Below, piece after piece: positions 52,284 to 64,000 of a stretch of 64,000 nucleotides of DNA. The notes under the pieces were generated by a model. It was not told where the DNA came from and did no database searches. It saw nothing but the letters and a program-made list of their open reading frames with translations. This DNA is from Methylomonas sp. MK1 (GTDB lineage Bacteria; Pseudomonadota; Gammaproteobacteria; Methylococcales; Methylomonadaceae), in the NCBI RefSeq assembly GCF_000365425.1, contig NZ_AQOV01000002.1, positions 434,001 through 498,000 of the forward strand, written 5' to 3'. The number at the start of each line of letters is the position of its first letter. Within the stretch, counting starts at the first letter, position 1. The position numbers and the translations under genes were made by a program.

Positions 52284-53210
52284 CTAGAAATTCAAATGCT
52301 GCTTACGTTTGCTGGCTATAAATCCTAATAAAGCAGAGCCGAATAGCCAAACGGACGAAGGAACCGGCACAGCTGTTACCGAAACTTGCCAGCCCACATC
52401 TTTCAGCGCGGCGAGATCGAGTTGCGTAAACACCTTGCGCGTGCCAACGTGTATAGTTGGGTCCATTGCTGTTTCTTGTTCAATGCCGTTTACCGTGCTT
52501 TTGGTACCGTCTAACCAATGAACCTTATCTCCTTCCAGCGGCACATTGCTGCCATAAGCCGCTACTGCATTGGCACCGGTAAAGCCGGAGCCTGAGGCTT
52601 GATTATCCCAAGAGTCGGAACTGCCTAGACCTAATAAGTGGCCTAACTCATGCAGAGCCACCGAATAAAAATCGTTGCCGCTAAAGGCTTCTGTGGTTGA
52701 AAGATCGGCGTCGAAATACCAGTTTGCCGAACTGCTGAAGGTCAATTGGCCGCCCCATGGTGCAAAATCAGTTGCCAATGGGCCGGAGGTAGGATTTGAT
52801 TGGCCGCGTTGCGCTGCATTGGTCAAAAAATCTTGGGTACCGCTGACGTTGTAACCGCCGTAGCCGCCATAGCCCAAGTTGCCGGCGCCCATGGTCTGTC
52901 CGCCAACAAACACCGTGAGTGTGTCGGCTGCTACACTGAAATTGCTTAATGTAGTCTCGGCGCCAGTATCCGGGCGATTAAATACCGCGCTGAAATTATT
53001 GGCACCGCCGGATGTAATCGCTGTCAAGCTGTCGGTCAAGATGCTTCCCAAAAAGCCGCCGGCGGCGTCTAGGATGTCTCGTCTACTTGTGTTGCTGCCG
53101 GAGAAAAAGCCGCCATCGTAGGTATAGTCAAAATTGATGACGACAGCGTCAGCTGATTGGCTGGCGGCCAGCAACAAGACGCCGGCGAATGCGGATGGTT
53201 TAATAAGCAT
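52284..53210 (-). CDS. PEP-CTERM-type metalloprotease-like protein
   Basis: 308 residues. An N-terminal signal peptide (cleavage near SADA-VVI) and a C-terminal sorting tail: VPVPSSVWLFGSALLGF, a membrane helix, and a basic end (SKRKQ). This is the PEP-CTERM design, processed by exosortase and linked to exopolysaccharide producers. A metzincin-like zinc site HELGHLLGLG spans H187-E188-H191 and G194-G196. The residue at the classical third ligand (197) is serine; H231 (in KVHWLDG) may be the third ligand. A later methionine (M249) fits a Met-turn. Also rich in glycine and asparagine. Confidence 0.8.
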   Translation of the reverse strand: MLIKPSAFAGVLLLAASQSADAVVINFDYTYDGGFFSGSNTSRRDILDAAGGFLGSILTDSLTAITSGGANNFSAVFNRPDTGAETTLSNFSVAADTLTVFVGGQTMGAGNLGYGGYGGYNVSGTQDFLTNAAQRGQSNPTSGPLATDFAPWGGQLTFSSSANWYFDADLSTTEAFSGNDFYSVALHELGHLLGLGSSDSWDNQASGSGFTGANAVAAYGSNVPLEGDKVHWLDGTKSTVNGIEQETAMDPTIHVGTRKVFTQLDLAALKDVGWQVSVTAVPVPSSVWLFGSALLGFIASKRKQHLNF

Positions 53211-53573: not shown

Positions 53574-56342
53574 TTGAAAAACAACGCTGCTACTTATTCG
53601 GTCGGAATCGACCTAGGCACGACCCATACCGTGGTCGCCTACTCCGACATCCACGATCCTGCGAAAGCAATTCACCTGTTCGAGATTCCTCAGCTGATCG
53701 CGCCAGGGGAAGTGAATGCCAAGCCACTATTACCGTCGGTGCGTTACCATCCTGCGCTCGGAGAAATAAGCGCCGAGGCCGGGTTTTTAACCCAGGAAAA
53801 TGGCGCTGTGCTGGGTGAAGCGGCGCGCTTGCTGGGTGCCAAGTCGCAAGGCCGTTTGGTTACCAGCGCCAAGAGTTGGTTGTCGCACACAGCCGTTGAT
53901 CACAGTGCTGCTATTTTGCCTTGGGGCAGTGACGAATCGGTATTTAAAGTCTCGCCGCTGGAAGCCAGCGCTAGTTATTTGCGACATGTCTGTTCCGTTT
54001 GGGAGCAGCGTTTTCCCTCTGCGCCACTTGCTCTGCAGGAAGTTGTGATTACGGTGCCGGCGTCCTTCGACGAGTCCGCGCGATCCTTGACCCTGGAAGC
54101 GGCAAAGATGGCCGGTTTGAAAGGCGTCAGGTTGCTAGAAGAGCCGCAAGCAGTTTGTTACGACTGGCTGCGCCGGCATGCCGGTACCATCAAATCCAGT
54201 CTGGCCGGTAGCCGGTTATTGCTGGTCTGCGATGTCGGCGGCGGTACTACCGATTTGACTTTGATCAAGATTGAGCAGGGTCTAGATGAGCCGCGGCTGA
54301 CGCGCATAGGTGTCGGCGACCACCTGATGTTGGGTGGCGACAATATTGATCTGGCTCTGGCGCATTTAGCGGAAAGCCGCTTGCGAGCCGGCGACAAAAA
54401 ACTCTCTACCGCCGATTTATCGCAATTGCTGGAGCAATGTCGGATCGCCAAGGAATTGTTATTGGCTGACGATGCCCCGGAGCACGTTGCTGTAACCTTA
54501 TTGGGCGGCGGTTCCAGGTTGATTGGCGGCACTAAAAGCGCCACGCTAAGCAGAGAGGAAGTTAAGCAAATTGCCTTGGATGGTTTTTTGCCCCTATCCG
54601 GTTTGCAAGACCTGCCGGACAGGAAGCGTAGCGGAGTAGTGGAGTTTGGCTTGCCCTACGCGGCGGAGCCGGCTATCAGTAAGCATATAGCCGCCTTTTT
54701 GCAGTTGCATGCGCAAGCGGCACAAACTGCCCTGGGTAGTACGGGCGCAGAGCATCAAATAGTCCCCGACGCCTTATTGCTGAACGGCGGCGTGTTTCGC
54801 AGTTCGGCCATGGTGCAACGGTTAATTGATTTATTAACCCGATGGCGTGGCGGGCGGCCGCCGTTATTGCTGGATAATAGCCATCCGGAATTGGCGGTGG
54901 CTTACGGTGCGGTAAGTTATGCAGTTGCCCGCCGCGAGAAGAACTTGAAAATCGGCGGCGGTGCGGCGCGTAGTTATTTTCTGCTTGTTGATGCCACGGT
55001 CAAAAGTGGCGATGGTAAGCAAGGCGGTCGTGGCGTTTGTATCCTGCCGAAAGGTAGTGAGGAAGGCCATGAGATTTTGTTAAGTGATCGGCAATTCGCT
55101 CTCCGAGTGGGACAACCGGTACGGTTTCATTTGCTGTCCAGCAGCGGAGACGGTAATTACCGGCCCGGCGCAATAGTCGAGCTAGATGACGAGCGGTTTC
55201 ACAGTCTGCCGCCGTTGGCAGTGGCGTTCGAAGGCCAGTTGAAAACTGAAGTTGCGGTGCAATTGCTGGCGACATATACCGAAGTCGGTACTTTGCAATT
55301 GCAGTGCGTAGCGGTGGCAGACTCCAACCAGCGTTGGGATGTAGAGTTTCAAATTCGCAAAAAAGCCCAAACATCCATAAATGCCGAATTACCTGGTCAA
55401 TTGCCGCAAGCGCTGGAGAAAGTCCAGGCCGTATTCGGAGCCAAATCCAAACAAGTCGATCCGCAGGCGGTAAAAACCTTGCGCGCCGATCTGGAAAACG
55501 TTCTCGCGGCACCGCGAGGCGCCTGGCAAACCCCGTTACTGCGCGAGTTGTTTACGGCCTTGCTGGACGGCAGTAAATACCGGCGGCGTAGTGAACAGCA
55601 CGAACGCCTCTGGTTGAGTTTGGCTGGCTTTTGCCTGCGTCCGGGCTTTGGTTATCCGCTCGACGATTGGCGGGTAGAGCAACTCTGGAAGCTATATGCA
55701 GAAGGGCTGCAGTTCGTTAACGAAAAACAGAACTGGGCCGAATGGTGGACCTTATGGCGGCGCGTTGCCGGTGGCCTGGGTGCGGATGCTCAACATCGTA
55801 TCTTTAACGACATCGCCAAATTCATCAATCCGGCTGCCTCGCGCCAGCCGGGTGTCGCGAAGCAACTGGCTACACGAGGTTACGAAGATATGGTGCGACT
55901 GGCGGCGGCACTAGAGCGGTTGAACCTTGTCGATAAAATTCAACTGGGCGAGTGGCTCTTGAAGCGTCTGGAAAAAGCCGGAGAGCCTGAGCAGAGTTGG
56001 TGGGCGGTCGGACGTATCGGTGGGCGGATTCTGTTTCACGGCAACAATCATCAGGTAATTCCAGCGAAGACTGCCGAAATCTGGCTGAAACAGCTATTGA
56101 GAGCTGATTGGAAAAAGCTAACCCAGGCCGGCTTTGCCGCCACCTTGTTGGCGAGGCGTTGCGACGACCGTGCTCGGGATATCGACGATAGCCTGCGAGC
56201 GCAGGTGATCGACAAGCTCAAACAAGCTAAATCCCCTGTGTCGTGGGTAGACATGGTTGCCGAATTCAAACAACTGGATGAACAACAGGAAAAGCAAGTC
56301 TTCGGCGAAGCGCTGCCGCCGGGCTTGAAACTAATTGTTTAA
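53574..56342 (+). CDS. Hsp70-family protein with C-terminal extension
   Basis: 922 residues from TTG 53574; no ATG occurs before the ATPase motif. Nucleotide-binding domain about 8-450: GIDLGTTHTVVAYSD (phosphate 1), DVGGGTTDLTLIKIE (phosphate 2, about 219), and LLLNGGVFRSSAM (adenosine). Residues about 470-640 resemble a substrate-binding beta domain; the last 280 residues are helical and fit the DUF3731-type extension known for such DnaK relatives. Chaperone or remodelling function is inferred from the ATPase domain only. No DnaJ or GrpE gene lies nearby, and it is divergent from the PEP-CTERM gene. Confidence 0.8.
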   Translation: MKNNAATYSVGIDLGTTHTVVAYSDIHDPAKAIHLFEIPQLIAPGEVNAKPLLPSVRYHPALGEISAEAGFLTQENGAVLGEAARLLGAKSQGRLVTSAKSWLSHTAVDHSAAILPWGSDESVFKVSPLEASASYLRHVCSVWEQRFPSAPLALQEVVITVPASFDESARSLTLEAAKMAGLKGVRLLEEPQAVCYDWLRRHAGTIKSSLAGSRLLLVCDVGGGTTDLTLIKIEQGLDEPRLTRIGVGDHLMLGGDNIDLALAHLAESRLRAGDKKLSTADLSQLLEQCRIAKELLLADDAPEHVAVTLLGGGSRLIGGTKSATLSREEVKQIALDGFLPLSGLQDLPDRKRSGVVEFGLPYAAEPAISKHIAAFLQLHAQAAQTALGSTGAEHQIVPDALLLNGGVFRSSAMVQRLIDLLTRWRGGRPPLLLDNSHPELAVAYGAVSYAVARREKNLKIGGGAARSYFLLVDATVKSGDGKQGGRGVCILPKGSEEGHEILLSDRQFALRVGQPVRFHLLSSSGDGNYRPGAIVELDDERFHSLPPLAVAFEGQLKTEVAVQLLATYTEVGTLQLQCVAVADSNQRWDVEFQIRKKAQTSINAELPGQLPQALEKVQAVFGAKSKQVDPQAVKTLRADLENVLAAPRGAWQTPLLRELFTALLDGSKYRRRSEQHERLWLSLAGFCLRPGFGYPLDDWRVEQLWKLYAEGLQFVNEKQNWAEWWTLWRRVAGGLGADAQHRIFNDIAKFINPAASRQPGVAKQLATRGYEDMVRLAAALERLNLVDKIQLGEWLLKRLEKAGEPEQSWWAVGRIGGRILFHGNNHQVIPAKTAEIWLKQLLRADWKKLTQAGFAATLLARRCDDRARDIDDSLRAQVIDKLKQAKSPVSWVDMVAEFKQLDEQQEKQVFGEALPPGLKLIV

Positions 56343-56472: not shown

Positions 56473-57573
56473 ATGGCAGACAAATACGGCATAGACAGTC
56501 ATAAACTGGTGTATCACCCGCAGCGGGTGGCGCAATGGTTGGATGGCAGGCACGATTGGCAGCAAGCGAAAGCCGTGTATCCTATCTACATGGAGGTCTC
56601 TCCGGTAGGTGCCTGTAATCACCGTTGCACGTTTTGCGCAGTGGATTACATCGGTTATAAAGCGCAGCGTCTGGATGTCAAAATTTTGGCGGAGCGTTTG
56701 ACTGAGATGGGTAAGCTTGGTGTGAAAAGCATCATGTACGCCGGCGAAGGCGAGCCTATGCTGCACAAGGAGATCAATGACATCGTCAAATGGACTTTCG
56801 ATGCCGGTATCGATGTGTCTTTCACTACCAACGGCACCTTGATGAACCAGCGTTTTGTCGAGCAATCCTTGCCGCTGGTATCGTGGATAAAGGTGTCGCT
56901 GAATGCCGGCAGTGCCGAAAATTATGCAGCCATTCATCAAACCAAGGCGTCCGATTTTGACTTGGTGCTGAACAATCTGCGTCGTGCGGTCGACCATAAG
57001 AAAACCCAGCAATTATCCTGCGCTCTGGGAGCACAAATTTTATTGTTGCCGGAAAATCAACATGAAGTAAGCACGCTGGCAAAAATCTGCCGCGAAATCG
57101 GTTTGGATTATCTGGTCGTCAAGCCGTATTCCCAACATCTATTCAGCGAAACCCGCCGCTACGAAGCCTTGCGATACGACAATCTACTGGGAATGGCCGA
57201 GGAACTGGCCCAATTCAACGGCGACGGCTTTAACGTGGTATTTCGCGAACAGACCATGAAGAACTACAGCCAATCGGAAACCGAGCGTTACAAAACCTGC
57301 CACGCCACTCCTTATTTTTGGGGCTATATCATGGCTGACGGCGAAGTCTACGGCTGCAGTGCCTATCTCACCGATCAACGCTTTGCTTACGGCAATATCC
57401 ATCAGCAGTCTTTCCAAGCCATCTGGGAAGGCGAGAAACGCCGGCAGAACTGGCAGTACATCACCCAGGACTTGGATATTAGCCAATGCCGCAAAAATTG
57501 CCGGATGGAGTCGGTTAATCAGTATCTGGACAAGCTCACGGCCAATCAGCCGGCCCATATCAATTTTATCTAG
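56473..57573 (+). CDS. Radical SAM enzyme with SPASM-like C terminus
   Basis: 366 residues from ATG 56473 (MADKYGIDSHKLVYHP); the frame is open another 46 codons upstream but that part has no protein-like features and overlaps the Hsp70 end. The 4Fe-4S cluster motif is C48-x3-C52-x2-C55 (GACNHRCTFCAVD); MYAGEGEPMLH is the glycine-rich SAM-binding strand. The C terminus has cysteines in YGCSAYL and QCRKNCRMES, suggesting an auxiliary cluster. Substrate is unknown. Probably the first gene of the sugar cluster, ten bases before the SDR gene. Confidence 0.85.
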   Translation: MADKYGIDSHKLVYHPQRVAQWLDGRHDWQQAKAVYPIYMEVSPVGACNHRCTFCAVDYIGYKAQRLDVKILAERLTEMGKLGVKSIMYAGEGEPMLHKEINDIVKWTFDAGIDVSFTTNGTLMNQRFVEQSLPLVSWIKVSLNAGSAENYAAIHQTKASDFDLVLNNLRRAVDHKKTQQLSCALGAQILLLPENQHEVSTLAKICREIGLDYLVVKPYSQHLFSETRRYEALRYDNLLGMAEELAQFNGDGFNVVFREQTMKNYSQSETERYKTCHATPYFWGYIMADGEVYGCSAYLTDQRFAYGNIHQQSFQAIWEGEKRRQNWQYITQDLDISQCRKNCRMESVNQYLDKLTANQPAHINFI

Positions 57574-57582
57574 GACAGACGC

Positions 57583-58569
57583 ATGAAAGTATTGGTTACC
57601 GGCGGAGCGGGATTTATTGGCAGTCATTTGAGTCGCGAGTTATGGCAACAAGGCCATCAGGTCAGCGTGATCGACAGTCTGGTTGGCGGCCGTAAAGAAA
57701 CTATTGCCGATTTGCTCGACCAAGAGCGTTTTGAGTTTCATCACGCCGATATTCGCGACGCCGAAACCATCGCGCCATTATTTGCAGGTATTGACTGGGT
57801 TTTTCACTTGGCCGGTCTAGCCGACATCGTACCCTCCATCGAGCAGCCGCGCGCGTATTACGAGACCAATGTCAGCGGTACATTCAATGTATTGGAAGCG
57901 GCTCGCGCCGCCGGTATCAAGCGATTTGTCTACGCGGCGTCGTCATCCTGCTACGGCATTCCAGATCAGTTTCCCACGCCGGAATCTGCGCCCGTTCAGC
58001 CACAGTATCCTTACGCTTTGACTAAATACTTGGGTGAGGAACTGGTGATGCACTGGGCACAGCTCTATGACTTGCCTGCAGTGTCGCTGCGCTTATTCAA
58101 CGTCTACGGCCCACATGCTCGTACCACGGGCGCTTACGGCGCGGTGTTCGGGGTGTTTCTGGCGCAAAAGATTAATGGTAAACCCTTTACCGTGGTCGGC
58201 GACGGCACCCAGACCCGCGACTTTACCTACGTCACGGATGTGGCCAAAGCCTTTATCGCCGCTGCCGAATCGGAACTTTGTGGCGAGATCATGAATGTCG
58301 GTAGCGGCGGCACCTACAGTGTCAATCAACTGGTGGGATTATTGGGCGGTGCGATCGAATACATTCCCAAGCGGCCCGGCGAGCCCGATTGCACCTTTGC
58401 CGACACCCGTAAGATCAAGACAAAACTTGGCTGGCAACCGCAAGTTAGTTTCGAGCAGGGTGTGGCCAATATGCTGGCGCACATCGATTACTGGCAAAAC
58501 GCCCCGCTGTGGACTTCGGCTTCTATCGCTGACGCTACTGCGGGCTGGTTTAAGTACCTGGACAAATAG
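57583..58569 (+). CDS. Extended SDR, NDP-sugar epimerase/dehydratase family
   Basis: 328 residues. NAD binding motif GGAGFIGSH at residues about 7-15; catalytic tyrosine and lysine in YALTK (context PYALTKYLGEE) with the serine in ASSSCYG. RLFNVYGPHARTTGAYG and GDGTQTRDFTYVTDVA are typical of UDP-sugar 4-epimerases and related GDP/CDP-sugar enzymes. Acts on a nucleotide sugar; which one is unknown. Eleven bases before the SIS gene. Confidence 0.9.
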   Translation: MKVLVTGGAGFIGSHLSRELWQQGHQVSVIDSLVGGRKETIADLLDQERFEFHHADIRDAETIAPLFAGIDWVFHLAGLADIVPSIEQPRAYYETNVSGTFNVLEAARAAGIKRFVYAASSSCYGIPDQFPTPESAPVQPQYPYALTKYLGEELVMHWAQLYDLPAVSLRLFNVYGPHARTTGAYGAVFGVFLAQKINGKPFTVVGDGTQTRDFTYVTDVAKAFIAAAESELCGEIMNVGSGGTYSVNQLVGLLGGAIEYIPKRPGEPDCTFADTRKIKTKLGWQPQVSFEQGVANMLAHIDYWQNAPLWTSASIADATAGWFKYLDK

Positions 58570-58579
58570 GGAGGAGCCC

Positions 58580-59143
58580 ATGGCTATCGGACAAGCGGCA
58601 GCGGATTTTGCGACTTTGCTGAACAACAGCGTATTTACAGACGCGCAGGGCCAAACCCTGGACGGCGAATCGGTGATACAGCAATTGCTTGCCGAGTTTG
58701 CCAGAGTCCGCGACCAGCAGGCTAAGATCATGGTGTTGGGCAACGGCGGCAGCGCTGCGATTGCCAGTCATGTGATTACCGACTTACGGAATGTCGGCGG
58801 CTTGTGCGCCTTGACCTTGCACGAAGCCGCGCCTTTGACTTGTTTTACCAATGATTTCGGTTACGAGCAGGCCTTCGCCAAACAAATTACCGCATTCGCG
58901 AATCCGGACGATTTATTGATCGCGATTAGCAGTTCCGGGCAATCCTTGAATATCGTCAACGCGGTACAAGCTGCCAACGCCAAAGGCTTGCCGGTCATGA
59001 CCCTAAGTGGCTTTAAGGCCGACAATCCGCTCCGTAAACTGGGGCGCTGGAATTGCTGGCTGGACAGCAGTCATTACGGCATGGTCGAGTTGGGGCATCT
59101 GTTCGTGTTGCACCATATTACCGATCATCTGCTCAGGAAATAA
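58580..59143 (+). CDS. SIS-domain sugar-phosphate isomerase, GmhA-like
   Basis: 187 residues from ATG 58580, chosen for GGGAGGAG immediately upstream and for family length; a longer frame from 58295 overlaps the SDR gene and is not used. SIS motifs: VLGNGGSAAIASHVITDL, LLIAISSSGQSLNIVNAV, and the late HYGMVELGHLFVLHHI with histidines like those of GmhA. GmhA converts sedoheptulose-7-phosphate to D-glycero-D-manno-heptose-7-phosphate, the step before HldE; next to an HldE-like gene this role is the natural guess. Confidence 0.85.
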   Translation: MAIGQAAADFATLLNNSVFTDAQGQTLDGESVIQQLLAEFARVRDQQAKIMVLGNGGSAAIASHVITDLRNVGGLCALTLHEAAPLTCFTNDFGYEQAFAKQITAFANPDDLLIAISSSGQSLNIVNAVQAANAKGLPVMTLSGFKADNPLRKLGRWNCWLDSSHYGMVELGHLFVLHHITDHLLRK

Positions 59144-59147
59144 GCTC

Positions 59148-60668
59148 ATGTCCACGGAAAAAATTGTCTCCATCGAACAACTGGCAAAACGTGCCGCCGA
59201 GTTGAAAGGCCAAGGCAAAACGGTGGCTTTATGTCACGGCACCTTCGATTTATTGCATATCGGCCATATTCGCCACCTGCAAAGCGGCGCGCGGCAGGCC
59301 GATGCATTGCTGGTCAGCGTTACCGCCGACGAATACGTCAATAAAGGCCCAGGGCGGCCGGTGTTCAACCAATATTTGCGTGCGGAAAACATAGCGGCAC
59401 TGGCTTGCGTCGATAGTGTGGCTATCAATCATGCGATTACCGCTGTGGAAGTATTGGACCAGGTCAAGCCTGATTTATATGTGAAGGGTAGCGATTACAA
59501 AAGTACCAGCGACGATTTGACCGGTAATATCCAGCACGAAAAAGACGCGGTAGAACGGCACGGCGGCAAGATTTACTTTACCGATGAACTGACATCCAGT
59601 TCGACGCGCTTATTGAACGAATATTTTGAGGTGTTCTCCCCGGAAATCTCCGCGTACCTGGATCAATTCAAGGAAACTGTCGGCGCCAACGAGATTATTG
59701 ATAAACTCAAGGCCTTAAGCGGTTTGAATGTATTGGTGTTGGGCGAAGCAATTGTCGACGAATACCATTACACCTCGCCCCTGGGGCAGACTGGCAAGGG
59801 CAATGTGTTTTCGGTGAAATACAACGACTACGAACGCTTTGCCGGTGGCGCGATAGCGGTGGCGAATCACGTCGCGGAATTTGCCCACAACGTCACTTTG
59901 CTGTCGGGTTTGGGCGCCACCAAAAGTCACGAAGATTTCATCCGTACCAATCTGAACCCGGCGATTGATCCGGTGTTCTTCTTCAGTCAGGATCGGCCGA
60001 CGATCGTGAAGCGACGTTATGTCGATGCCGACATCGCTAAGTTATTTGAAGTGTATTTTTATAACGATGCGCCCTTGCCGGAGGAAACCAATCGCAAGAT
60101 CGTGGCTTGGCTGGAAAAGCATTTGCGCGATTACGATGTGGTGATCGTGCCGGATTTTGGTAATGGCTTCATCTCCAATCAAATGGTCGCGGCCTTGTCC
60201 AAAGGCGCTAAATATTTGGCGGTGAACGCGCAGGTCAATAGTGGCAATCGGGGTTATCACTTAATCACGCGTTATCCGAACGCGGATTTCTTGTCGTTAA
60301 ACGAACCGGAATTACGATTGGCGAGCCACGATAGAGGTGGTGCCATCGAGGAATTGGCCGGCCAGTTGGCCGACAAATTAAGCGCCAACCATATCGCCAT
60401 TACCCGCGGTACTAAAGGTGCGTTAATGCTGGATCACGCTAAAACGGCATACAAGATTCCCGCTTTGTCGTCCAAAGTGGTGGATCGGATCGGTGCCGGC
60501 GATGCTTTTCTGTCCGTGGCGGGTTTATGTTTGGGCGGAGGGCTGTCGCCGGAGCAAGCCTTGTTTGCCGGCAGTGCCGCCGCCGCGCTGGATGTGCAAA
60601 TTGTCTGTAACCGCGAGCCGGTGCGGGCAGTGGCTTTATTCAAATACATTACCACCTTGTTGAAATGA
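59148..60668 (+). CDS. HldE-like bifunctional nucleotidyltransferase-kinase, reversed domain order
   Basis: 506 residues from ATG 59148; the frame is open upstream into the SIS gene but AGGAA precedes the chosen ATG. The N-terminal domain (about 20-160) is a cytidylyltransferase: GTFDLLHIGH at 31-40 (HxGH), a lysine-glycine-serine-aspartate segment, and SSSTRLLNEYF. The C-terminal domain (about 190-500) is a PfkB/ribokinase-type kinase with DRIGAGDAF at about 445-455 (catalytic aspartate). E. coli HldE has kinase first and transferase second; here the order is reversed. The 3' end overlaps the E1 alpha gene (ATGA). Confidence 0.9.
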   Translation: MSTEKIVSIEQLAKRAAELKGQGKTVALCHGTFDLLHIGHIRHLQSGARQADALLVSVTADEYVNKGPGRPVFNQYLRAENIAALACVDSVAINHAITAVEVLDQVKPDLYVKGSDYKSTSDDLTGNIQHEKDAVERHGGKIYFTDELTSSSTRLLNEYFEVFSPEISAYLDQFKETVGANEIIDKLKALSGLNVLVLGEAIVDEYHYTSPLGQTGKGNVFSVKYNDYERFAGGAIAVANHVAEFAHNVTLLSGLGATKSHEDFIRTNLNPAIDPVFFFSQDRPTIVKRRYVDADIAKLFEVYFYNDAPLPEETNRKIVAWLEKHLRDYDVVIVPDFGNGFISNQMVAALSKGAKYLAVNAQVNSGNRGYHLITRYPNADFLSLNEPELRLASHDRGGAIEELAGQLADKLSANHIAITRGTKGALMLDHAKTAYKIPALSSKVVDRIGAGDAFLSVAGLCLGGGLSPEQALFAGSAAAALDVQIVCNREPVRAVALFKYITTLLK

Positions 60669-61693
60669 CCGTCATGAGTCCAGCATCTGCCGACTTGAAG
60701 CACCTGTATTATCAAATGCTGCGCATCCGCCGCGCTGAGGAAGCGATTGCTCGGCGCTATGCCGAGCAGCAAATGCGTTGTCCCACGCACCTTTGCATCG
60801 GCGAGGAAGCTATCGCAGTGGGGGTTTGCGCGCATTTGACAGTTCAAGACAAAGTGTTCAGCAATCATCGCGGTCACGGCCACTATTTGGCCAAAGGCGG
60901 TGATTTGCCACGCCTGTTGGCCGAGCTCTATGGTTTTGCCGAAGGCTGCTGCGGTGGTCGAGGTGGATCCATGCATCTTACCGACTTGGACGCCGGCTTT
61001 GTCGCTTCCACGCCCATCGTCGGCGGCACTGTGCCATTAGCCGCCGGTTATGCCTGGGCCGAGCAGATGAAAAAATCCGGCGCCGCACAGGGATGTGCCA
61101 GTGTCGCGGGAGGCAGGATGCCGGAAGCGACCAACGTTGTGGTGATTTTCTTCGGCGATGGTTGCTTTGAAGAAGGGGTGATGCACGAAACCTTGAATTT
61201 TGCGGTTTTAAAGCAACTGCCGTTGCTATTTATCTGCGAGAACAACCAATATTCGGTTATGACGCCGTTGGCGGAGCGCCAGCCCAAACGCGATATTTAT
61301 AAAATAGCCGCTGCCCACGGTTTACACGCAGTTAGCGGCGACGGTAATCGGGTTGATGAAGTATATGAACTGGCGCAAGCGGCTGTTGCCAACGCCCGAA
61401 ATGGATTGGGTCCGCAGTTTTTGGAATTGCATACCCATCGCTGGCCGGAACACTGCGGACCTAACGAAGATGACGACTTAGGTTATCGCAACCCAGGCGA
61501 ATTGGCGGCTTGGAAATTGCGCTGCCCGTTATTGCAAACCCGGCAGACGTTGCTTGACGCACAATTGAGCGATGATGCCGAAATAATACAAATGGAAACC
61601 TGTTTGGCCCTGGAAATTGAACAAGCCTTTGCCTGGGCTTTGCAAGGGACACGTCCCAAGATCGACAGCATGAGGCAGCACCTGTATGCGTGA
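60665..61693 (+). CDS. ThDP-dependent 2-oxoacid dehydrogenase E1, alpha subunit
   Basis: 342 residues; ATG 60665 overlaps the preceding stop, and a second ATG lies at 60674. The thiamine diphosphate motif GDG followed by NN is in FFGDGCFEEGV...CENNQYS. Also present: LCIGEEAIAVGV, NHRGHGHYLAKGGD and GGRGGSMHL, as in acetoin and pyruvate dehydrogenase E1 alpha. The enzyme would decarboxylate a 2-oxoacid and carry an acyl or aldehyde unit on ThDP. Overlaps E1 beta by eight bases. Confidence 0.92.
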   Translation: MTVMSPASADLKHLYYQMLRIRRAEEAIARRYAEQQMRCPTHLCIGEEAIAVGVCAHLTVQDKVFSNHRGHGHYLAKGGDLPRLLAELYGFAEGCCGGRGGSMHLTDLDAGFVASTPIVGGTVPLAAGYAWAEQMKKSGAAQGCASVAGGRMPEATNVVVIFFGDGCFEEGVMHETLNFAVLKQLPLLFICENNQYSVMTPLAERQPKRDIYKIAAAHGLHAVSGDGNRVDEVYELAQAAVANARNGLGPQFLELHTHRWPEHCGPNEDDDLGYRNPGELAAWKLRCPLLQTRQTLLDAQLSDDAEIIQMETCLALEIEQAFAWALQGTRPKIDSMRQHLYA

Positions 61694-62759
61694 TGTTAGG
61701 CTGATGAGTTATGGTGAGGCGATCCGCGAAGCGTTGGACGATGCTTTGGCCCAGTTTCCGGACATGTTATTAATCGGCGAAGGCGTGCCGGACCCGAAGA
61801 CCATCTTTGCAACGACCCAGGGTTTGCGCGAGAAGCACGGTGCTGATCGGGTATTAGACATGCCGTTGGCAGAAAACGGCATGACCGGGATCTGCATCGG
61901 TGCGGCCCTGGCGGGTATGCGGCCGGTGCTGGTGCATCAGCGTATTGATTTTGCCTTGCTGTCGGTTGATCAATTGGTCAATAACGCCGCGAAATGGCAT
62001 TACATGTTCGATGGCCAGCAACAGGTGCCGCTGGTGATTCGGGTGATTATTGGAAGGGGATGGGGGCAGGGACCGCAGCATTCCCAAAGTCTGCAAGCTA
62101 TGTTCGCGCAAGTGCCGGGCTTGAAAGTGGTGATGCCGACCACCGCCGGCGATGCCTACCACTTTATGTTGGCGGCAATTGCCGATAACAATCCGGTGCT
62201 GTTTATCGAACATCGCTGGTTGCATCACATCATTGGCGAGGTGGATAAACAGGCGCCGGCGGCTGGCTTGGACGGCGCGGCGGTAATGCGCGAAGGCCGG
62301 GATGTGACGTTGGCGGCGTTCTCGCACATGAGTATTGAAGCCTTGAAGGCGGCAACGACACTGGCCGAACACGGCATTGATGCCGAAGTATTGGATATGC
62401 GATGCGTCAGTGCGTTGGACGTAGAGAGTGTTGCCGCATCGCTGGCTAAAACCGGCGGTAAATTGTTAATAGCGGATTGCGCGCCGGAAATGGCGTCGAG
62501 CGGCCATCAGTTGCTATCTAAGCTCGTGTTGGCGCACGGGGATAGCCTGAAGCAAGCGCCGCGCTTGATTGTTTATCCTAATCACCCGGTACCGACCTCG
62601 CATTATGTCGCGAACCACTATTATCCGGGAGCCGAGCAGATCGCCAGTGCCGTACTGGAAATGCTAGGTCGATCAGAATTAACAGCCTCGGTAATCGGCG
62701 CTTTGCAGTCCGATTTGCCCAAAGATCAACCCGACCGCAGCTTCGTCGGCCCGTTTTAA
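61686..62759 (+). CDS. ThDP-dependent 2-oxoacid dehydrogenase E1, beta subunit
   Basis: 357 residues. Transketolase-like central fold with the catalytic glutamate in PLAENGMTGICIGAALAG, then GRGWGQGPQHSQSL and the C-terminal regulatory fold (GGKLLIADCAPEMASSG). It pairs with E1 alpha to form an alpha2-beta2 enzyme. Neither E2 nor E3 is in the window, so acyl transfer to another acceptor is possible. The stop is 19 bases before the radical SAM gene. Confidence 0.92.
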   Translation: MRDVRLMSYGEAIREALDDALAQFPDMLLIGEGVPDPKTIFATTQGLREKHGADRVLDMPLAENGMTGICIGAALAGMRPVLVHQRIDFALLSVDQLVNNAAKWHYMFDGQQQVPLVIRVIIGRGWGQGPQHSQSLQAMFAQVPGLKVVMPTTAGDAYHFMLAAIADNNPVLFIEHRWLHHIIGEVDKQAPAAGLDGAAVMREGRDVTLAAFSHMSIEALKAATTLAEHGIDAEVLDMRCVSALDVESVAASLAKTGGKLLIADCAPEMASSGHQLLSKLVLAHGDSLKQAPRLIVYPNHPVPTSHYVANHYYPGAEQIASAVLEMLGRSELTASVIGALQSDLPKDQPDRSFVGPF

Positions 62760-62778
62760 CGAAAAAGAGCATCAGACC

Positions 62779-64000
62779 ATGGCAAAAATTGAACAAACCA
62801 ATCGCTTCGGCAACAGCGCCGTCACCGATATACCCGACAACGTGCCCATGTTCAGCCAACCCGGACATAAACTGCGCACGTCCAATAACATCGTGGACCG
62901 CAGCGCCTTGTCGAGCGACTATCAGGTGATCGACACCAGCCAGTTGGCTAAATTGCCAGGCCAGAAATTACAAAGCATTTCCCACGACGATCAAGAAGGC
63001 ATCATCCGCCTGGAAGCGGGCAGTGAGCAGGAACAGCACGTTCCCAACCAGTTTACTGGCCCCAGTTTCCGCACCCAGCGAGAACGGTTTCGTTTCGACG
63101 GTCACAAAATGATGCACCATTTAGACAGAGTGCAGGCTTGGCAAAACGGCCAACGTTTTGCGCCGGTGCATATCGATATGGGGTTGACCAAGTTTTGCAA
63201 TACCGCCTGCCTGTATTGCTACGCCGTGGTACAGAACATGACCAAGGGCACCATGATAGGCCGGGATGCTTTGCTGAATTTTGTCCGTGATTGCGGCAAG
63301 TTGGGTGTGCGCTCCTTGGGCTTTATCGGCGATGGCGAACCGACGCTGAACCCGACCCTCTACGATGCTACTGTGCTGGCCGGCGAACTGGGTATCGATA
63401 CAGCGATGGCCACGAATGGTTTGTTATTGGATATGGATCGGGCTCACGACTTACTGAAAAATATGAGTTACATCCGCTTCAATCTATCCGCCGGTACCCC
63501 GGAAGGTTTCAGACGAGTGCATCAATCCAAAGAAGTCAATTTTCATTTGCTGATCGACAAGATCCGCGAACTGGTGAAAATCAAGAAAGAAAACAATTAC
63601 AAATGCACGCTGGGCTTGCAGATGGTGCTAATCCCGGAATGCTTTGATGAGGTATTGGACGAGGCTAAACTGGGTGCCGAATTGGGTGTGGATTATTTCG
63701 TGATCAAGCATTGTTCAGATTCAGAATACAAGGAAATCGGTATCGATTACGACGCCTATCTAAAAATCGGCGATACCCTGAAACAAGCTGAGGCGCTGAG
63801 TAATGACACCTACGTGGTTCAAGCCAAATGGAACAAGATCAACGCTGCCGGTGAAACAAATCTTTATAAGGACGGCTACCGCAAATACGACCAATGTTTC
63901 GGCACGCCGTTTTTATTGCAGATTTCCGGTAACGGCAAAATTTATCCTTGTGGACCGTTTTTCAATAAAGAGCGCTTTTACATCGGCGATCTACATACCG
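62779..64000 (+). CDS. Radical SAM enzyme, partial at the right edge
   Basis: At least 407 residues; no stop in the window. Start MAKIEQTNRFGNS at 62779. The first about 130 residues form an N-terminal extension without clear family signs. The 4Fe-4S motif is C140-x3-C144-x2-C147 (FCNTACLYCYAV), followed by GFIGDGEPTLNP (GGE-type strand). Towards the edge, YDQCFGTPFLLQISGNGKIYPCGPFF resembles a SPASM-like cysteine segment. It continues the sugar cluster, 19 bases after E1 beta. Confidence 0.85.
   Translation, partial: MAKIEQTNRFGNSAVTDIPDNVPMFSQPGHKLRTSNNIVDRSALSSDYQVIDTSQLAKLPGQKLQSISHDDQEGIIRLEAGSEQEQHVPNQFTGPSFRTQRERFRFDGHKMMHHLDRVQAWQNGQRFAPVHIDMGLTKFCNTACLYCYAVVQNMTKGTMIGRDALLNFVRDCGKLGVRSLGFIGDGEPTLNPTLYDATVLAGELGIDTAMATNGLLLDMDRAHDLLKNMSYIRFNLSAGTPEGFRRVHQSKEVNFHLLIDKIRELVKIKKENNYKCTLGLQMVLIPECFDEVLDEAKLGAELGVDYFVIKHCSDSEYKEIGIDYDAYLKIGDTLKQAEALSNDTYVVQAKWNKINAAGETNLYKDGYRKYDQCFGTPFLLQISGNGKIYPCGPFFNKERFYIGDLHT

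What the first reader, a model, noticed from the sequence alone, without database searches (positions are those of the whole stretch)
56473..64000. Compact cluster joining nucleotide-sugar, thiamine-E1 and radical SAM genes
Seven genes on one strand with overlaps or gaps of 19 bases or less: radical SAM, SDR, GmhA-like SIS, reversed HldE-like enzyme, E1 alpha, E1 beta, radical SAM. GmhA, HldE and an SDR are the parts of a nucleotide-heptose pathway; E1 without E2/E3 suggests transfer of a decarboxylated 2-oxoacid unit to a sugar or other acceptor; two radical SAM enzymes could add further C-H or C-C chemistry. I know no named pathway with this set. The cluster continues past the right edge, so glycosyltransferases, GmhB-like phosphatase or a transporter may follow.
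Basis: partly seen in the sequence, partly recalled or inferred. Interest (0 to 1): 0.8.

Follow-up and report, generated by a model that had tools for sequence, protein, structure and literature searches.

The report
Surface-sugar cassette with lone E1 enzyme
A methane-eating bacterium carries, beside its flagellin-sugar genes, a seven-gene cassette also found in other bacterial groups that appears to build an unknown sugar using a vitamin-B1 enzyme usually known as part of pyruvate dehydrogenase; in related bacteria a different B1 enzyme often takes its place.

Summary
In detail: seven + strand genes (radical SAM rS1, GalE-like SDR, GmhA-like SIS, reversed HldE-like HLD, E1 alpha, E1 beta, radical SAM rS2), gaps of 19 bases or less, in a Methylomonas near strain LW13. 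Rightward come glycosyltransferase-like genes, a legionaminic-acid gene set and flagellin genes: a flagellin glycosylation island. No E2 is near.

Elsewhere the cassette recurs: 30 of 41 full-flank HLD loci carry E1 alpha/beta, 27 of those rS2. These E1 betas form one clade apart from nine ordinary ones. In a second draw of 40 HLD genomes E1 alternates with a split transketolase: E1 14, transketolase 21, both 3, neither found 2 (17 judged by locus only); two HLDs 98% identical sit in genomes with one or the other. So a thiamine-diphosphate C-C-bond step seems part of the pathway and swappable.

Best reading: an uncharacterised activated-sugar pathway in which E1 alpha/beta, without E2, adds an acyl unit from a 2-oxoacid to a sugar carbonyl, as proposed for AviB1/AviB2 and EvdU5/EvdS3. 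Product, nucleotide and step order are unknown. 'Nucleotide-heptose' is unproven: SIS, HLD and SDR miss the GmhA, HldE and HldD cut-offs, and the SIS metal site differs.

The parts
56473..57573 (+). rS1, radical SAM/SPASM enzyme (366 aa), first gene of the cassette
   Evidence: PF04055 and PF13186 over cut-off; CxxxCxxC invariant in 29 of 29 aligned; predicted fold nearest DesII, SkfB, BlsE, SuiB
57583..58569 (+). SDR, GalE-like NDP-sugar epimerase/dehydrogenase
   Evidence: PF01370; galE 198 bits vs cut-off 262, heptose epimerase 116 vs 275; at least 50% identical in 29 of 30 full-flank E1 loci
58580..59143 (+). SIS, GmhA-like sugar-phosphate isomerase with H-D-E-H at the GmhA metal-site positions
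   Evidence: PF13580; gmhA 84 bits vs cut-off 209; H, D and E in 61 of 61 aligned, last H in 60 of 61, placed by alignment to GmhA structures
59148..60668 (+). HLD, N-terminal cytidylyltransferase-like + C-terminal PfkB kinase (HldE domains in reversed order)
   Evidence: PF01467 then PF00294; HldE 163 bits vs cut-off 521; HG.FDL.H.GH and DR.GAGD invariant in 12 of 12 aligned
60665..61693 (+). E1 alpha-like ThDP subunit
   Evidence: PF00676 176 bits; PDH E1 alpha 260 bits vs cut-off 394; EHCG in 44 of 44 cassette relatives, 0 of 9 controls
61686..62759 (+). E1 beta-like ThDP subunit with C-terminal tail ending GPF
   Evidence: PF02779+PF02780; GxGWGQGP and GPF end in 43 of 43, GxGWGQGP in 0 of 9 controls; one clade 100/100
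62779..64000 (+). rS2, second radical SAM enzyme (463 aa in full; continues beyond the window)
   Evidence: PF04055; full gene L004 8779-10170; CxxxCxxC invariant in 19 of 19 aligned

Best explanation
The seven genes make an unusual activated sugar for a surface glycan, in this lineage most likely one put on flagellin. Inferred route: SIS isomerises a ketose phosphate to an aldose phosphate; the PfkB half of HLD phosphorylates it and the nucleotidyltransferase half activates it; the GalE-like SDR and rS1 create or move a carbonyl or alter a C-H/C-O position; E1 alpha/beta binds thiamine diphosphate, decarboxylates a 2-oxoacid (pyruvate is the default guess) and, having no E2, hands the acyl carbanion to a carbonyl of the sugar, giving a two-carbon-extended or branched sugar; rS2 edits that product; GT1 or a neighbouring transferase attaches it. 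Shown: anatomy, conservation, lack of a neighbouring E2, distinct E1 clade, flagellin-island setting, alternation of E1 with split transketolase. Inferred: every reaction, the substrate, the nucleotide and the step order. My shares: surface-sugar pathway 0.85; E1 acting without E2 in C-C bond making 0.7; acting after HLD on the activated sugar 0.45.
For: Cassette beside LegB/LegC/NeuC/NeuB/NeuD and flagellin genes. E2 homology only weak and off the cassette in 3 of 65 loci, while in 5 of 5 annotated ordinary E1 loci fetched E2 is the next gene. E1 beta clade 100/100 against 9 ordinary E1 betas. Active-site Glu and His stretches kept in 43 of 43 E1 betas (the roles are recalled). Alternation with split transketolase: among 23 genomes searched genome-wide E1 only 7, transketolase only 13, both 2, neither 1 (Fisher p 0.001). 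This points to ThDP carbanion chemistry, not acyl-lipoate, as the conserved need. Two HLDs 98% identical occur with E1 in one genome and transketolase in another, so the ThDP step follows HLD or both enzymes yield one HLD precursor. Other genes change with it: rS2 in 27 of 30 and 5 of 7 E1 loci but 0 of 7 and 1 of 8 transketolase loci; HAD/kinase in 6 of 7 and 8 of 8 transketolase loci but 0 of 37 E1 loci. Precedent: AviB1/AviB2, Pau11/Pau12, EvdU5/EvdS3 proposed to acetylate keto-sugars. Of 72,556 plasmid records two carry HLD; one has the best E1 beta match, the other the best transketolase match.
Against: No substrate or product known. The SDR is GalE-type, so how a stable keto-sugar would arise is unclear. 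AviB/Pau/Evd sequences were not held, so kinship to them is untested. SIS is not constant: found in 30 of 30 full-flank E1 loci of the first sample but only in 2 of 7 E1 and 3 of 8 transketolase loci of the second. In the second sample 17 of 40 loci show HLD with none of the queried partners and were judged genome-wide with identity cut-offs chosen after seeing the gap. Genomes in that sample are related, so the p-values are optimistic, and the 17 judged by locus were not searched genome-wide for the other enzyme. In L062 and L069 the Asp of the GDG stretch of E1 alpha is replaced. SPASM folds match peptide-modifying enzymes about as well. E1 could make an acyl group rather than a sugar C-C bond.
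Confidence: 0.5

Rival explanations
1. The ThDP enzyme works first: E1 (with hydroxypyruvate or another 2-oxoacid) or split transketolase (with a ketose phosphate) builds the same longer ketose phosphate, which is then isomerised and activated by HLD. E1 and transketolase are interchangeable sources of one precursor.
For: Explains why HLD stays near-identical (98%) while E1 and transketolase differ.
Against: Accompanying genes swap too (rS2 with E1; HAD/kinase, often rS4, and a methyltransferase with transketolase), which a shared precursor would not need. With pyruvate, E1 would give a 1-deoxy ketose that a GmhA-type isomerase could not turn into an aldose (reasoning).
Confidence: 0.27
2. E1 alpha/beta makes an acyl group (acetyl or hydroxyacyl) that is passed to an amino or hydroxy group of legionaminic acid or the sugar, without C-C bond formation to sugar.
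For: Nonulosonic acids carry varied N-acyl groups (recalled); a NeuD-type acetyltransferase lies in the island.
Against: No CoA ligase, E2 or acyl carrier among the seven genes; replacement by a transketolase fits poorly.
Confidence: 0.1
3. E1 alpha/beta is an ordinary 2-oxoacid dehydrogenase E1 that borrows E2/E3 from elsewhere and only happens to lie here.
For: Three E2-type (PF00198) matches exist elsewhere in the genome.
Against: Kept in the same loci as the sugar genes in 30 of 41 full-flank loci; own clade and signatures; the genome's other strong E1 alpha match lies within about 2 kb of an E2-type match on another contig.
Confidence: 0.05
4. The cassette is a variant nucleotide-heptose pathway (GmhA, HldE, HldD equivalents) and E1/rS2 belong to a separate neighbouring pathway.
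For: Best NCBIfam matches of SIS and HLD are GmhA and HldE; 8 of the 11 full-flank loci without E1 keep the SDR at 50% identity or more.
Against: All three enzymes below curated cut-offs; altered metal site; cassette-type E1 or transketolase seen in 38 of 40 HLD genomes of the second draw, so the ThDP enzyme tracks HLD.
Confidence: 0.08

Closest known systems
AviB1/AviB2 (avilamycin), Pau11/Pau12 (paulomycin), EvdU5/EvdS3 (everninomicin)
   Different: Actinomycete antibiotics; no SIS, HLD or radical SAM partners in the passages seen; sequence kinship not tested. The passages call the transfer proposed or hypothesised; pau11 was disrupted, but the outcome is cut off in the passage I saw.
YerE (yersiniose)
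   Same: ThDP enzyme adding a two-carbon branch to a sugar of Gram-negative O-antigens
   Different: Single acetolactate-synthase-type flavoprotein, not an E1 alpha/beta pair
GmhA-HldE-GmhB-HldD ADP-heptose pathway
   Same: SIS isomerase, PfkB kinase and nucleotidyltransferase of the same superfamilies
   Different: HLD domain order reversed; scores far below cut-offs; SIS metal site H-D-E-H instead of H-E-Q-H; no GmhB among the seven; GalE-like SDR
Pyruvate/2-oxoacid dehydrogenase E1
   Same: ThDP-binding region, active-site Glu and His stretches
   Different: No E2 nearby, different loop region (EHCG), GxGWGQGP, GPF tail
DesII and BlsE
   Same: SPASM radical SAM enzymes on a nucleotide sugar or a sugar nucleoside (functions recalled and from names); among the top matches of rS1
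   Different: 17-20% identity; peptide enzymes SkfB and SuiB match about as well
Legionaminic-acid flagellin islands (Campylobacter-type; recalled)
   Same: LegB, LegC, NeuC, NeuB, NeuD set and Maf-type protein beside flagellin
   Different: The E1 cassette is extra

Membership tests
2-oxoacid dehydrogenase complex | E2 (and E3) partner in the operon | tested here: not met
   Five E2 queries gave three weak hits (L044, L068, L059), off the cassette, in 65 loci plus L004; no E2 family among the right-flank genes scanned. E3 was not searched by itself.
2-oxoacid dehydrogenase complex | Curated PDH E1 alpha score | tested here: not met
   TIGR03182 260 bits against 394
2-oxoacid dehydrogenase complex | ThDP site and E1 beta active-site Glu/His | tested here: met
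   Window proteins align over GDG...NN, AEN and HSQ with PDH-type E1; which residues are catalytic is recalled
ADP-heptose pathway | GmhA equivalog score and H-E-Q-H metal site | tested here: not met
   83.6 vs 209.45 bits; H-D-E-H, first three in 61 of 61, last H 60 of 61. The GmhA ligand positions are recalled.
ADP-heptose pathway | HldE equivalog score, kinase-first order | tested here: not met
   163 vs 521 bits; order reversed
ADP-heptose pathway | HldD epimerase | tested here: not met
   116 vs 275 bits
ADP-heptose pathway | Uses sedoheptulose 7-phosphate, yields an NDP-heptose | not testable with these tools
   needs enzyme assay
AviB1/AviB2-type sugar acyltransferase pair | E1 alpha/beta pair without E2 inside a sugar cluster | tested here: met
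AviB1/AviB2-type sugar acyltransferase pair | Sequence clade with AviB/Pau/Evd proteins | not tested
   I did not have their sequences
AviB1/AviB2-type sugar acyltransferase pair | Transfer of a two-carbon unit to a keto-sugar | not testable with these tools
   needs enzyme assay
SPASM radical SAM enzymes | CxxxCxxC plus SPASM domain (rS1) | tested here: met
   PF13186 36.6 vs 21.5 bits, cysteines invariant in 29 of 29
SPASM radical SAM enzymes | SPASM domain in rS2 | tested here: inconclusive
   No Pfam SPASM hit for the part inside the window (full protein not scanned); CxxxCxxC invariant in 19 of 19; model poor, pLDDT 64
Flagellin glycosylation island | Nonulosonate genes and flagellin/Maf genes side by side | tested here: met
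   flagellin block also in 3 of 4 related genomes fetched

The most novel reading that the evidence does not exclude
A widespread, undescribed modular pathway for carbon-extended surface sugars: an activation core (HLD with SDR, usually SIS and rS1) into which different ThDP modules are plugged, E1 alpha/beta + rS2 for acyl transfer or split transketolase + HAD/kinase + methyltransferase, often another radical SAM, for ketol transfer, so that a lineage changes its surface sugar by swapping the C-C-bond-forming enzyme. The E1 family here would be a new E2-independent carboligase acting on activated sugars.
Probability: 0.35. Interest if true: 0.82.

Novelty: new variant of a known kind. Interest (0 to 1): 0.62.

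Why it matters
E1 alpha/beta pairs are usually annotated as pyruvate dehydrogenase parts. A conserved E2-less clade tied to sugar activation would correct many annotations and offers a tractable system to prove E1-type C-C bond making on sugars, which the passages read on avilamycin, paulomycin and everninomicin describe as proposed. The alternation of E1 and transketolase with the same activating enzyme would show how bacteria diversify surface sugars by exchanging one chemical step, and the flagellin setting gives an easy readout.

Tried and rejected
Considered and set aside: ordinary PDH E1 (no E2 near, own clade); plain ADP-heptose pathway (cut-offs failed); peptide-modifying role of the radical SAM genes (no precursor peptide was looked for; the fold comparison does not separate sugar from peptide SPASM enzymes). 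The rS2 model was too poor to search. The Hsp70/DUF3731 gene upstream (53574-56342) is not counted as part: its cluster has six loci, the window's own and five Methylomonas. Nucleotide specificity stayed open: NCBIfam favours the HldE half (97 vs 36 bits), the PDB profile search has a cytidylyltransferase on top. Literature: searches listed no paper, one search listed 25 of 42 and one, none on this gene set by title and abstract; one search listed flagellin papers (10 of 115). I saw passages of three papers and searched a fourth for four terms without a hit; for the rest listings only. Treede 2005 (AviB1/AviB2) was not held.

Results against my reading, and limits: 11 of 41 full-flank loci lack E1. 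A third module without any ThDP enzyme found (HAD + enolase-superfamily + DJ-1) occurs in L021, L026, L033, L065, in the last three with a B12-type radical SAM and an SDR. Two Myxococcota loci (L061, L063) lack rS1, SDR and SIS. L062 and three second-draw genomes carry both E1 and transketolase. L044 and L068 (transketolase loci) also have a distant E1 pair (30-36%), with a weak E2 hit beside it. Second draw: 23 of 40 loci show neither a transketolase pair nor E1 beside HLD (G536 has E1 about 3.5 kb away), 17 of these 23 no queried partner at all; they were judged genome-wide, where the SDR turned up in 18 of 23, and G651 had neither ThDP enzyme; G1048 was judged by locus only. Flagellar genes were seen in only 3 of the 65 loci (flanks up to 10 kb), so flagellin as target is claimed for the window's lineage only. 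The HLD tree keeps some module signal (21 changes, 500 shuffles mean 33, least 25).

Rows dropped: HLD tree, 18 of 66 first-sample rows (close copies, short contigs or no module visible) and L101, whose contig is that of L043, so that 39 of the 40 second-draw genomes are new. Of 48 other genomes with HLD I fetched 39, of three one.
Full report
1. What is there. The finding's coordinates hold. On the + strand lie rS1 56473-57573, SDR 57583-58569, SIS 58580-59143, HLD 59148-60668, E1 alpha 60665-61693, E1 beta 61686-62759 and rS2 from 62779. The window is G000:C2:434001-498000. HLDs 98% identical sit in Methylomonas sp. LW13 and M. fluvii. The next stretch of contig was read. rS2 ends about 170 bases past the window. 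Then follow a 1280-aa protein with Glyco_trans_1_2 hits (GT1), a third radical SAM/SPASM gene, a gene without Pfam hit that I call GT2, PhyH, two methyltransferases, then a CTP_transf_3 gene, LegB (526 vs cut-off 475), LegC (547 vs 420), NeuC, NeuB and NeuD (all over their cut-offs), an NTP transferase with CBS domains, flagellin, FlaG, FliD, a FliS-like gene (my naming, not family-scanned), a second flagellin (80% identical to the first), and an MptE-like/TPR protein of the Maf kind ('Maf' is recalled). So the cassette heads a flagellin glycosylation island. In four related genomes fetched, Leg genes follow the cassette in four and the flagellin block was seen in three.

2. Conservation. A pattern scan of the genome collection with the HLD alignment returned 65 loci, by record title from several classes of Pseudomonadota, Nitrospirota, Nitrospinaceae, Omnitrophota, Sericytochromatia, Acidobacteriota, Myxococcota and Chlamydiae (titles not checked). 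In 41 loci with at least 3.5 kb left and 5 kb right, rS1 occurs in 33, SDR in 37, SIS in 37, the E1 pair in 30, rS2 in 28 and in 27 of the 30 with E1 (35% identity cut-off, anywhere in the locus). Ten of the 30 are Methylomonas/Methylobacter. Within the window's own family HLD is patchy: 9 of 151 genomes, 2 of 29 genera, as expected of a surface-glycan locus. dN/dS is 0.009-0.123; in all eight comparisons the highest value of the seven genes is that of E1 alpha or E1 beta.

3. E1 is a family of its own. Five E2 queries found three weak hits, off the cassette, in 65 loci plus L004; the same queries found the genome's own E2-type genes. By contrast, of seven ordinary E1 loci fetched from plasmid records five are annotated, and in all five E2 is the next gene. 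EHCG in the E1 alpha loop that carries the phosphorylation site in human PDH (recalled) is present in 44 of 44, GxGWGQGP in E1 beta in 43 of 43, and a GPF C-terminus in 43 of 43; 0 of 9 controls has the first or second. These sets were picked at 40% identity or more, so this describes the family rather than tests it. In L062 and L069 the Asp of the E1 alpha GDG stretch is replaced. A tree of 53 E1 betas puts the 43 cassette proteins and one from Azospirillum oryzae on one side of a 100/100 branch and nine ordinary ones on the other. More distant pairs (40-43% identity) without an annotated E2 beside them occur in two Azospirillum plasmids next to aminotransferase genes (EHVGP, WGQGA, GPF variants), in Solidesulfovibrio magneticus next to sugar genes (no such loop motif found) and in Streptomyces griseofuscus in a setting without evident sugar genes. 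In six of nine further genomes E1 alpha and beta share one open frame of 690-724 codons (two read in full).

4. E1 alternates with transketolase. Of the 11 full-flank loci without E1, 7 carry a split transketolase N-half. A second draw, 40 loci from 40 genomes (one genome already in the first sample), was then judged. Seventeen by locus: E1 7, transketolase 8 (one of them, L116, cut by the contig end), both 1, neither 1; the other enzyme was not searched elsewhere in these. Twenty-three genome-wide with E1 beta and a transketolase N-half from L118: E1 only 7, transketolase only 13, both 2, neither 1. Cut-offs were 50% (E1 beta; next hit 44%) and 63% (transketolase; next hit 51%), set at the gaps after seeing the data. 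Fisher p for the 23 is 0.001, for all 40 2.8e-6; kinship makes both optimistic. Inside one genus (g382) 4 have E1, 3 transketolase, none both. HLDs of G639 (E1; genome 78% complete, so a missed transketolase is possible) and G542 (transketolase; 99%) are 98% identical. On an HLD tree of 87 rows the module label needs 21 changes (shuffles: mean 33, least 25 of 500). Partner genes track the module: rS2 in 27 of 30 and 5 of 7 E1 loci against 0 of 7 and 1 of 8 transketolase loci; HAD/kinase in 0 of 37 against 14 of 15; a methyltransferase in 2 of 37 against 14 of 15; rS4 in 0 of 37 against 7 of 15. Plasmid records give an independent check: only two of 72,556 hold HLD at E 1e-60; the Azospirillum oryzae one holds the best E1 beta match, the Solidesulfovibrio carbinolicus one the only transketolase match of 60% or more among 349.

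6. Known context. Passages seen say that, to the authors' knowledge in 2015, two mechanisms had been described for two-carbon sugar branches, AviB1/AviB2 with AviO2, and YerE, and that pau11, an AviB1 homologue, was disrupted to prove the paulomycin cluster (PMC4425429); that installation of the branch by AviB1/AviB2 is proposed (PMC4753412); and that EvdU5/EvdS3, PDH-like, is hypothesised to acetylate UDP-4-keto-xylose (PMC10338323). The window pair works like these are proposed to; membership was not tested by sequence. No paper on this gene set appeared in the listings.

7. Verdict. A real, conserved, uncharacterised sugar cassette; new variant of a known kind. The strongest new fact is the E1/transketolase alternation; the weakest point is the lack of any substrate evidence.

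Noticed in passing
window 52284-53210 (-): 308-aa protein with a HELGHLLGLG zinc-protease-like motif and a C-terminal VPVPSSVWLFGSALLGF stretch like a PEP-CTERM sorting signal (motifs recalled, no family search made).
   Followed up: no
window 60665-61693: E1 alpha of the window, L006 and Methylobacter L011 carries a length-variable insertion just before the GDG motif that is absent from the other 17 relatives shown.
   Followed up: partly
L142, L145-L149: E1 alpha and E1 beta of the cassette type share one open frame (690-724 codons) in six of nine genomes.
   Followed up: partly
L021, L026, L033, L065: Third module beside HLD without a ThDP enzyme found: HAD phosphatase, enolase-superfamily protein, DJ-1/PfpI; in L026, L033, L065 also a B12-type radical SAM and an SDR.
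   Followed up: partly
L022, L023, L024, L037, L043, L045: A small conserved protein (median 123 aa) lies between E1 beta and rS2; the one scanned (L024 13577-13945) has no Pfam match.
   Followed up: no
L108, L109, L112, L113, L114, L117: A GT1-like glycosyltransferase lies near HLD, hinting that GT1 uses the HLD-derived sugar.
   Followed up: no
L186 7989-10035: Streptomyces griseofuscus plasmid has an E1 pair without annotated E2, with the GRGWGQG motif, beside a condensation-domain gene and away from evident sugar genes.
   Followed up: no
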